Of a DNA stretch of 64,000 nucleotides, positions 1-1,794 are shown in pieces. The notes beneath the pieces were generated by a model. That model saw nothing but the letters and a program-made list of their open reading frames with translations, ran no database searches and was not told the origin of the DNA. Every line of letters starts with the position of its first letter. Position 1 is the stretch's first letter. Origin of the DNA: Actinomycetes bacterium (lineage in GTDB: Bacteria > Actinomycetota > Acidimicrobiia > Acidimicrobiales > Aldehydirespiratoraceae); the NCBI GenBank assembly GCA_024276495.1, contig JAJRXC010000061.1:28870-92869 (forward strand), written 5' to 3'. A program made the translations under genes and the position numbers.

Positions 1-789
1 CAAGACGGTGGCCTGGTCTCCGCGATCCTCATCTGGTGCCTCGAGAACGACATCATCAACGGCGCCCTCACCTCCGGCGTGGAAAACCTGCCGAACGGGG
101 ATCCGGGATGGAAGGCGTTCCCGATGGTGGCCACCAACCGCGACGAAGTCCTGCGCGGCGCGGGCAGTCGCTACACCTACTCGGCCAACACGATGGCCTT
201 CCCCGAAGCCAAGGAGCGCGGCCTCGATCGCCTCGCCCTCGTCGGGATGAGCTGTCAGACGTCGGTCGCCCCCGTGATGTGGCATCGCAAGATCGGCAAG
301 GTCTCCAAACCGTTCAAGCTCAACATCGGGCTGTTGTGCTCCAAGTCGTTCGACGACTCGCTGTTCGACGAGCTCTTCGAGGTCAAGTACGGCCTCAAGA
401 AGGAAGACATCGCCAAGATGAACATCAAGGGCGTCTTCCAGATCTGGACCAAGGACGGCGGGTATCACGAGATCAACCTGAAGGAGTGCCACGCCTGGAC
501 CCGCGAAGGATGCCACCACTGTCCCGACTTCGCGGCCGAGCACGCCGACATCTCCACCGGCGGAATCGGCAACACCACCGACTGGACCCTCACCATCATC
601 CGCACCGAGCTCGGCCGGGCGATCATCGACGCCATGGTGCGGGACGGCGTCATCGAGACCCGCCCCGGCGACGACGACCCCGGCGCGATCGCCTTGATGC
701 ACAAGCTCGCGGCGAAGAGTCGCGCCCGATGGCCGGAGTGGGCGCAGCCCGCGGCCCGGGTGGGAATACCGGAGAAGAAGTCGGGTTGA
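1..789 (+). CDS. FrhB-type coenzyme F420 hydrogenase/dehydrogenase beta subunit family protein (5' truncated)
   Basis: The frame is open from the first base, so the N-terminus lies outside the window; 262 residues are visible. The segment reads as the FrhB/FdhB family: a QDGG...SAIL opening typical of the N-terminal domain, a conserved GMSCQTS stretch and, around residue 180, CHHCPDF followed by a GGIGNTTDWT segment, as in the C-terminal domain with its Fe-S cysteines. Family members pass electrons between F420H2 and a partner through FAD and Fe-S clusters; the partner here is unknown. The stop lies 7 nt before the GTG of the DsbA-like gene, so the two may be co-transcribed. The family call is solid; the substrate is not determined. 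Confidence 0.85.
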   Translation, partial: QDGGLVSAILIWCLENDIINGALTSGVENLPNGDPGWKAFPMVATNRDEVLRGAGSRYTYSANTMAFPEAKERGLDRLALVGMSCQTSVAPVMWHRKIGKVSKPFKLNIGLLCSKSFDDSLFDELFEVKYGLKKEDIAKMNIKGVFQIWTKDGGYHEINLKECHAWTREGCHHCPDFAAEHADISTGGIGNTTDWTLTIIRTELGRAIIDAMVRDGVIETRPGDDDPGAIALMHKLAAKSRARWPEWAQPAARVGIPEKKSG

Positions 790-796
790 CAGACCC

Positions 797-1411
797 GTGC
801 ACATCGATTTCTGGGTGGATCCGATTTGACCCTGGTGTTGGGTGACGGCCCGTTGGGTCGTCGACGAGATCAAACCGGCCCGTGACCTCGACATCACGTG
901 GCAACCGATCAGCCTGCTGTTCAAGAACGAGCCCGATCCCGGCTCCGACTACTTCAAGGCGAGCGAGTTCACCCACAAACTGCTGCGGGTGATGGAGTCG
1001 GTGCGCGCCGCCGAGGGCGACGACGCCGTTTTCGACCTCTACTGGGAGTACGGCCGGCGCATCCACCACGACCAGACCCGTGACTTCACCGCGTTCGACG
1101 CCCTCGACGCGATCGGCCACGACACCGCCCACGCGGCGGCGTTCGACGACGAGTCGTGGGATGCCGAGATCCGCACCCGCATGGATGTCGGCCTCGCGCT
1201 TGCCGGCGACGACATCGGCACGCCGATCATCGCGTTCGACGACCGGGCCGGCGTGCAGCAGGCCTATTTCGGTCCGGTGATCACCCGGGTGCCGCCCACC
1301 GACGACTCTCTCGCCATGTGGGACGCCTTGATGACCATGATGAACATCGACGGCTTCTGGGAGCTCAAGCGGACCCGAACCGAACGGCCCTTCTTCGGCG
1401 AACGACCTTGA
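797..1411 (+). CDS. Rv2466c-family DsbA-like oxidoreductase, probable selenoprotein (in-frame TGA at 827-829 read as Sec)
   Basis: From GTG 797 the frame reads VHIDFWVDPI, then TGA at codon 11, then PWCWVTARW and 190 further residues with no other stop. The mycobacterial mycothiol-dependent nitroreductase Rv2466c has DFWFDPLCPWCWITSRW at the same place and ends in the same ELKRTRTE motif, so TGA replaces exactly the nucleophilic Cys of CPWC, giving UPWC with the second Cys at residue 14. The 204-residue length matches the family. Starting at GTG 842 instead would delete the active site and the first beta strand. A SECIS-like hairpin follows (844-862). The alternative is a TGC-to-TGA nonsense mutation or sequencing error. 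Its likely role is mycothiol-coupled thiol/nitro reduction in the cytosol. Sits 7 nt after the FrhB gene and overlaps the thioesterase start. Confidence 0.78.
844..862 (+). promoter_or_regulatory. candidate bacterial SECIS hairpin
   Basis: Bases 844-851 (GACGGCCC) pair with 855-862 (GGGTCGTC) in eight base pairs, one a G-U wobble, closing a 3-nt loop GTT at 852-854. The loop starts 22 nt after the TGA at 827-829, and its first base is G followed by U. Published bacterial SECIS rules ask for a 4-16 bp stem, a short loop with G in its first two positions and 16-37 nt spacing, all met here. Found by eye without a folding program; GC-rich coding DNA gives chance pairings. Confidence 0.6.
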
Positions 1412-1794
1412 CCCGACGGCCCGAACGAGATCGACCCGGACGAGACGGGGAGGACATCCTCGACCTTCTCGAACCGGAGGTCCTGGAGCAATCGGACGGA
1501 CACGTGGTGTTTCGATTCCGGTCCCAGCCTCGCCTGACGATCCCCGGGGGCATCGTACAGGGCGGCATCGTCGCGTCGATGCTCGACATGGGCATGGCGT
1601 TCGCGGCCGATCGGATCTCGACCGTGACACTTCACGTCGACTATCTGCGACCCGCGGTCGGACCCGTCTTGACGGTCACCGCCGACGTGACCCGGCGAGG
1701 CAGCCGGATCGTCTTCATCGAGGCGGTCATGGTCGACCAGGACGGTCGAGTCATCGCGAAGGGTCGTCAGACCGCCGTGCCGATCGACGACTGA
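1408..1794 (+). CDS. PaaI-type hotdog-fold thioesterase
   Basis: A 128-residue protein with a 4HBT hotdog domain: GGIVQGGIVASMLDMGMAFA forms the central helix, followed by TLHVDYLRPAVGPVLTVTADVTRRGSRIVFIEA, typical of PaaI/YdiI-like acyl-CoA thioesterases. The start is a TTG at 1408 whose last two bases are part of the preceding gene's TGA (1409-1411), so translation is probably coupled to the DsbA-like gene. No other plausible start precedes the domain. Presumed to hydrolyse an acyl- or aryl-CoA ester; the substrate is unknown. Confidence 0.8.
   Translation: MTRRPERDRPGRDGEDILDLLEPEVLEQSDGHVVFRFRSQPRLTIPGGIVQGGIVASMLDMGMAFAADRISTVTLHVDYLRPAVGPVLTVTADVTRRGSRIVFIEAVMVDQDGRVIAKGRQTAVPIDD

What the first reader, a model, noticed from the sequence alone, without database searches (positions are those of the whole stretch)
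797..1411. Probable selenoprotein: UPWC version of the mycothiol-dependent nitroreductase Rv2466c family
Direct observation: one frame from GTG 797 to TGA 1411 is interrupted only by TGA at 827-829, and translates on both sides as one Rv2466c-type protein. The TGA sits exactly at the first Cys of CPWC, the nucleophile, and the remaining 190 codons are intact. A gene caller would report either a truncated protein from GTG 842 without its active site, or nothing. Family knowledge: DsbA-like and other thioredoxin-fold proteins often exchange this Cys for Sec. Inference: the organism encodes Sec insertion (SelA, SelB, SelC, SelD) and this is a target. I do not recall a described Sec form of this family, but cannot search.
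Basis: partly seen in the sequence, partly recalled or inferred. Interest (0 to 1): 0.93.

Follow-up and report, generated by a model that had tools for sequence, protein, structure and literature searches.

The report
Selenium version of Rv2466c-type enzyme
In this bacterium and many relatives, a gene for a redox enzyme of the Rv2466c family (named after the enzyme that activates certain tuberculosis prodrugs) has a UGA stop codon exactly where the catalytic cysteine is normally encoded, followed by a conserved sequence predicted to fold into a hairpin, so the enzyme is very likely made with selenocysteine, and most of its closest database entries lack the active site.

Summary
Window 797-1411 encodes an Rv2466c-type protein (PF22234) whose only internal stop is TGA 827-829, at the first Cys of CPWC. 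The genome has selA, selB, tRNA-Sec and selD; selD itself carries an in-frame TGA. Of 112 distinct loci collected, 50 have TGA at this codon and 62 have Cys; all 50 stay open beyond it. In 49 of 50, one fixed place fits the published bacterial SECIS rule; among Cys genes 1 of 62 does, probably a fossil. Codons in the hairpin are nearly frozen. On a tree the Sec form lies inside the Cys family, with Cys forms nested in it again (at least 5 changes). Of the 120 best database proteins, 76 begin just after the active site. The 2026 catalogue I consulted lists broad "DsbA-like" selenoproteins but no Rv2466c, PF22234 or mycothiol family; that some of its DsbA-like sequences belong here is not excluded. 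Mycothiol dependence is inferred: MshA-like and MshC-like genes are present but below curated cut-offs. Sec insertion itself is untested.

The parts
797..1411 (+). Rv2466c-type gene, read through the UGA: 204 residues, U11-P-W-C14
   Evidence: codon 1 aligns with ATG, GTG or TTG in 46 of 50 TGA rows
827..829 (+). in-frame TGA, codon 11, predicted selenocysteine at the nucleophile position
   Evidence: TGA in 50 of 112 distinct loci, TGC or TGT in 62
836..838 (+). TGT, Cys14, predicted resolving cysteine
   Evidence: Cys in 50 of 50 TGA rows; role by alignment with Cys22 of Rv2466c
844..862 (+). bacterial SECIS-type hairpin: arms 844-850 and 856-862, loop 851-855 (CGUUG), 21 bases after the UGA
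   Evidence: published rule met at this place in 49 of 50 TGA rows and 1 of 62 Cys rows; pairs kept in 99.7% of cells against 41.9%; same helix from RNAalifold
842..1411 (+). truncated ORF from GTG 842 that gene callers report, without the active site
   Evidence: P0002
1..789 (+). upstream neighbour, end of a 391-residue FrhB/FdhB-like protein that begins 387 bases before the window
   Evidence: PF04432 112.4 bits and PF04422 63.7 bits; conserved near 17 of 49 other TGA loci and 1 of 62 Cys loci
1408..1794 (+). downstream neighbour, 4HBT thioesterase-type protein; the TTG start, overlapping the stop of the Sec gene, is my choice
   Evidence: PF03061 37.1 bits, cut-off 20.6; found near 4 of 49 other TGA loci

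Best explanation
This gene is predicted to encode a selenoprotein, an Rv2466c-type oxidoreductase in which the UGA at the catalytic cysteine position is likely read as selenocysteine, directed by a conserved predicted hairpin that begins 14 bases after it. Seen in sequence: the UGA, the hairpin sequence, the intact frame, the Cys forms in relatives, and selA, selB, selD and tRNA-Sec in the genome. Inferred: SelB brings Sec-tRNA-Sec to the UGA; Sec11 acts as the nucleophile and Cys14 resolves it; the selenenylsulfide is reduced by a low-molecular-weight thiol, probably mycothiol; the enzyme reduces mixed or internal disulfides, and perhaps nitro compounds, under oxidative stress, as its Cys relatives do.
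For: Family match with the UGA exactly at the first Cys of CPWC. tRNA-Sec, selA, selB and selD over their cut-offs in the same genome; ARAGORN calls the tRNA-Sec with anticodon TCA; selD has its own in-frame TGA in HGAGUGCK. TGA in 50 of 112 distinct loci, all open for 194-203 codons afterwards. In the class sample 25 of 51 matches carry a TGA, 0 carry TAA or TAG. None of the 25 TGA genomes lacks both selA and tRNA-Sec, six of 25 Cys genomes do. SECIS rule 49 of 50 against 1 of 62. Synonymous constraint on codons 16-19, 21, 22. Sec form nested in the Cys family. dN/dS 0.16-0.20. Rv2466c relatives: nucleophilic and resolving Cys, mycothiol as reductant (passages of PMC8280269 and PMC11841060).
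Against: No protein or selenium data. selB matches its model only over positions 2-338 of 581 (275 bits, cut-off 242; open frame 624 aa). Covariation in the hairpin is thin: one two-sided change, in three related rows. Mean folding energy does not separate the TGA from the Cys set. In single-sequence folds the helix appears in 27 of 30 TGA rows; L024, L041 and L042 prefer another fold. Codon 39 and a few others outside the hairpin are also biased. selA alone is weakly associated (p 0.098), the class being rich in selA (200 of 296); G342 (TGA) has no selA at E 1e-40, G282 (TGA) no tRNA-Sec. The MshC-like and MshA-like genes fall below the curated cut-offs, and the MshC-like one passes the cut-off for cysteine--tRNA ligase.
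Confidence: 0.92

Rival explanations
1. The UGA really stops translation and an internal start at GTG 842 yields a functional 189-residue protein without the active site.
For: Gene callers choose this start in 76 of the 120 listed database proteins; codon 16 is GTG in 47 of 50 TGA rows.
Against: Codons 1-15 keep the protein sequence in 50 TGA rows (W6, D8, P9, P12, W13, C14, W15 in 50 of 50); the stop is never TAA or TAG in 25 class matches; a GTG at codon 16 also belongs to the frozen hairpin region; such a protein would have lost the catalytic motif.
Confidence: 0.04
2. The UGA is read as an amino acid other than Sec, for instance Cys or Trp by a suppressor or altered tRNA.
For: Relatives have Cys at this position; Sec insertion was not measured.
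Against: The tRNA-Sec, selA, selB and selD are present, the SECIS rule is met, and genes here otherwise end at TGA, such as this gene itself and selD.
Confidence: 0.02
3. Nonsense mutation, pseudogene or sequencing error.
For: In a single sequence an in-frame stop alone would look like this.
Against: The same TGA in 50 distinct loci from many genomes, two of them single contigs; open frames after it; dN/dS 0.16-0.20.
Confidence: 0.01
4. On novelty, not on mechanism: this is already catalogued, as part of the broad DsbA-like UxxC selenoprotein family.
For: The protein also passes the PF01323 cut-off (28.2 against 25.6 bits). The catalogue lists DsbA-like form 1, PF01323, UxxC, NIP15863.1, first found in Sargasso Sea data with 9 sequences filed under COG2761 (passages of PMC1088965). 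Whether Rv2466c-type proteins fall under COG2761 I did not test.
Against: No hit for Rv2466, mycothiol or nitroreductase in the 2026 review's main text and no PF22234 in its table; NCBIfam of June 2026 has no model that matches at 1e-3; the bacterial DsbA-like hosts named in the passages of PMC1794560 are Deltaproteobacteria and Clostridia.
Confidence: 0.3

Closest known systems
Rv2466c / Mrx2, mycothiol-dependent reductase and nitroreductase (PF22234)
   Same: Same family by profile and by solved relatives; same CPWC site, with the first Cys as nucleophile (passages)
   Different: First Cys encoded by UGA with a SECIS-type hairpin; activity and thiol partner untested here
DsbA-like selenoprotein form 1 (PF01323, UxxC; catalogue entry NIP15863.1)
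   Same: DsbA-type thioredoxin fold family with a UxxC motif
   Different: Catalogue does not file it under PF22234; kinship of its representative with this clade not tested
SelD selenoprotein (selenide, water dikinase) of the same genome
   Same: In-frame TGA at a catalytic loop position, same decoding machinery
   Different: Unrelated enzyme, well-known selenoprotein

Membership tests
Bacterial selenoprotein | in-frame UGA aligned with a redox Cys of homologues | tested here: met
Bacterial selenoprotein | bSECIS hairpin downstream: loop 3-9 nt, stem 4-16 bp, G in the first two loop positions, spacing 16-37 nt, MFE -7.5 or lower (rule as in PMC13188914) | tested here: met
   49 of 50 TGA rows, 1 of 62 Cys rows
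Bacterial selenoprotein | selA, selB, selD and tRNA-Sec in the genome | tested here: met
   each over its curated cut-off
Bacterial selenoprotein | selenium in the protein | not testable with these tools
   needs mass spectrometry or 75Se labelling
Rv2466c-like (PF22234) | match over the curated cut-off | tested here: met
   125.8 bits, cut-off 27
Rv2466c-like (PF22234) | CPW/FC active-site motif | tested here: inconclusive
   UPWC by sequence; CPWC only with Sec read as Cys
Rv2466c-like (PF22234) | mycothiol as reductant: mycothiol pathway in the host | tested here: inconclusive
   MshC-like 418 of 485 bits, MshA-like 384 of 462 bits, both below cut-off; best solved relatives MshC and 3c48
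Rv2466c-like (PF22234) | nitroreductase or demycothiolating activity | not testable with these tools
   needs enzyme assays
DsbA-like selenoprotein form 1 of the catalogue | PF01323 domain with UxxC | tested here: met
   28.2 bits, cut-off 25.6; PF22234 scores far higher
DsbA-like selenoprotein form 1 of the catalogue | same clade as the representative NIP15863.1 | not testable with these tools
   no look-up by that accession

The most novel reading that the evidence does not exclude
The first selenoenzyme of the mycothiol redox system: a Sec-based Mrx2 that arose within the Cys lineage of Acidimicrobiia, was kept across several of their families, and has reverted to Cys several times, once leaving a fossil SECIS hairpin (L129) in a genome that still has the Sec machinery.
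Probability: 0.55. Interest if true: 0.75.

Novelty: new variant of a known kind. Interest (0 to 1): 0.62.

Why it matters
It would give a Sec form to the enzyme family that activates thienopyrimidine prodrugs in mycobacteria, tie selenium to the mycothiol system, and offer a natural Sec/Cys comparison with repeated changes on one tree. It also means that most of the nearest database entries lack their active site, which annotation can correct once the UGA is recognised.

Tried and rejected
Mean folding energy against synonymous recoding as a SECIS test: not specific, the Cys set scored as low (z -2.6 and -3.9 for TGA, -4.2 and -3.6 for Cys); not used as evidence. selA presence alone: weak, since 200 of 296 genomes of the class have it over the cut-off (p 0.098). 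TGA forms outside the class: in 396 sampled genomes of the phylum 77 had matches at E 1e-25 or better; 14 matches were flagged with a stop. Three (G000, G125, G052) are of the class with TGA at codon 11; the other 11 have Cys at codon 11, and in my realignment three of their stops lie at query positions 195, 202 and 203, one in a column without a query residue, and seven beyond the end of the alignment. Viral contigs: no relative. Structure prediction and fold search were not run; sequence similarity to Rv2466c was enough. Pseudogene and sequencing error rejected.

Full report
OBSERVATION. Searches show a frame from GTG 797 to TGA 1409-1411 with one internal stop, TGA 827-829, at codon 11. The read-through protein matches PF22234, Mycothiol-dependent nitroreductase Rv2466c, at 125.8 bits (cut-off 27), and PF01323 at 28.2 bits (cut-off 25.6). 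phmmer aligns it to four solved sequences (E 8.5e-33 to 2.8e-31), U11-P-W-C14 on CPWC, or CPWS in entry 5xur, named Rv2466c. In Rv2466c Cys19 is the nucleophile and Cys22 the resolving residue (passages of PMC8280269; see also PMC11841060). No NCBIfam model matches at 1e-3.

MACHINERY. The window's own genome (4.33 Mb, 111 contigs, 97.4% complete, 4.0% contamination) has tRNA-Sec over the cut-off, which ARAGORN also calls, anticodon TCA. selB and selA are over their cut-offs and adjacent on contig 79; the selB match covers model positions 2-338 of 581 in an open frame of 624 residues. selD is over its cut-off with one in-frame TGA, HGAGUGCK. So the genome has a second, textbook Sec target. It also has two weaker paralogues with Cys at codon 11 and no second Cys, CPFA and CPWA.

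RELATIVES. One scan of genome contigs gave 79 loci (98 relatives found, best 80 kept). In 78 the site could be read: 29 TGA and 49 Cys codons; L063 lacks the site. In a sample of 296 genomes of the class, 50 had a match at E 1e-40 or better, 51 matches in all: 25 with one TGA, 26 without a stop, none with TAA or TAG. I fetched 40 of these: all 24 TGA matches besides the window's own, and 16 of the 26 without a stop. With duplicates removed there are 112 distinct loci: 50 TGA, 45 TGC, 17 TGT. The named TGA loci are titled Acidimicrobiia, Acidimicrobiales, Acidimicrobiaceae, Actinomycetes or Actinomycetota, one of them Ferrithrix. In a phylum sample of 396 genomes TGA at codon 11 was seen only in three genomes, all of the class.

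HOSTS. Of the 25 TGA genomes of the class sample, selA was found in 24 (not G342) and tRNA-Sec in 24 (not G282); none lacks both. Of 25 Cys genomes, selA was found in 19 and tRNA-Sec in 18; six lack both. Fisher p: lacking both 0.022, selA alone 0.098, tRNA-Sec alone 0.049, without correction for kinship. Among 50 genomes of named loci, selA was over the cut-off in 28 of 29 TGA genomes (G013 has a fragment at a contig edge) and 16 of 21 Cys genomes. Cys forms thus also occur in Sec users; the association is one-sided and the class is rich in Sec users (selA in 200 of 296).

SECIS. The bases after the UGA are nearly frozen in TGA rows and varied in Cys rows. A stem of bases 18-24 with 30-36, counted from the U of UGA, is paired in 99.7% of cells in TGA rows (42 distinct) and 41.9% in Cys rows (61 distinct); RNAalifold finds the same helix. 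One pair has a two-sided change, in three related rows; covariation is thin and the case rests on conservation. The apical loop is CGUUG (34), CGGUG (12) or AGGUG (4), which fits the published pattern N1-G-[G/U]-N-N2 (PMC13188914 section 5); spacing is 21 nt. The rule is met at this place in 49 of 50 TGA rows (not L024) and 1 of 62 Cys rows, and anywhere in range in 49 of 50 and 7 of 62. Single-sequence folds of 30 TGA rows show the helix in 27. Against the set's own codon usage, codons 16-19, 21 and 22 are more uniform than expected (pair identity 1.00, 0.85, 1.00, 0.53, 0.82, 0.96 against 0.37, 0.52, 0.41, 0.29, 0.37, 0.37), while codons 7, 9, 24 and 25 are not; codon 39 and, less so, 37 and 41 are also biased for no reason I know. 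Folding energy against synonymous recoding did not separate the sets.

EVOLUTION. With codon 11 masked, a tree of 112 proteins puts all 50 Sec rows in one 59-row group (support 95/90) beside the rest of the Cys family, with nine Cys rows nested in it; at least 5 changes (starred branches force 2; bootstrap 4-6), against 36.9 in shuffles. The root is a midpoint and forks inside the group are partly open, so one gain with about four reversions is my reading, not forced. One nested Cys row, L129, from G077, which has selA and tRNA-Sec, keeps all seven pairs and fits the SECIS rule: a likely fossil. The other eight keep 2 to 6; the 53 further Cys rows keep 0 to 5.

ANNOTATION. Of 1961 database proteins found, 120 are listed; 76 begin at residue 16, just after the active site, 42 have CPWC or CPFC, 2 begin later still. 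That the 76 come from TGA genes is inferred; their DNA was not checked one by one.

FUNCTION. Cys relatives reduce mycothiolated and intramolecular disulfides with mycothiol as reductant, and Rv2466c activates nitro prodrugs (passages). Here an MshC-like gene scores 418 bits (cut-off 485); it scores 414 for MshC and 355 for cysteine--tRNA ligase, whose cut-off of 340 it passes, but a separate cysS lies beside it and its best solved relatives are MshC, 353.6 bits, ahead of cysteine--tRNA ligase, 296.8. An MshA-like gene scores 384 bits (cut-off 462; next hit 106), best solved relative 3c48, which I recall to be MshA. I infer a host with mycothiol or a close kin. An FrhB/FdhB-like protein lies just upstream here and near 17 of 49 other TGA loci but 1 of 62 Cys loci (p 2e-6 without correction for kinship); its ferredoxin-type matches are below cut-offs. 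A link of electrons to F420 is possible but untested.

NOVELTY. The 2026 review (PMC13188914: section 5 and parts 1-2 of 3 of section 7 read, rest by term search) counts 119 families and subfamilies and lists DsbA-like forms 1 and 2, but its main text has no hit for Rv2466, mycothiol or nitroreductase. My eight paper searches (listings only, apart from passages of papers named here) listed no paper that describes this. A table of PMC5029168 gives 41 and 45 for DsbA-like protein (passage; column heads not seen), and some of those could be these. Hence: new variant of a known kind.

Noticed in passing
L018 1480-2520 (own genome, contig C48): selD has an in-frame TGA at codon 18 in HGAGUGCK: SelD is itself predicted to be a selenoprotein here.
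   Followed up: partly
L129 (Cys form, from G077): Cys gene that keeps all seven pairs of the SECIS-type stem in a genome with selA and tRNA-Sec: likely fossil of a Sec to Cys change.
   Followed up: partly
G132, G194, G226, G239, G318, G322, G324, G342 (family f45): The Sec gene lies 7.3-10.2 kb from the tRNA-Sec gene in 8 of the 10 TGA genomes of this family; in the other two, G187 and G263, they are on different contigs.
   Followed up: no
window 1-789 and L164 7614-8789: Upstream FrhB/FdhB-like F420 protein, found near 17 of 49 other TGA loci and 1 of 62 Cys loci.
   Followed up: partly
L100, L101 (own genome, contigs C99 and C111): Two paralogues with CPFA and CPWA in place of CPWC, so without the resolving Cys.
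   Followed up: no
codon 39 of the TGA rows (window 911-913): Serine codon more uniform than the set's usage (AGC in 38 of 50), well outside the hairpin and unexplained.
   Followed up: no
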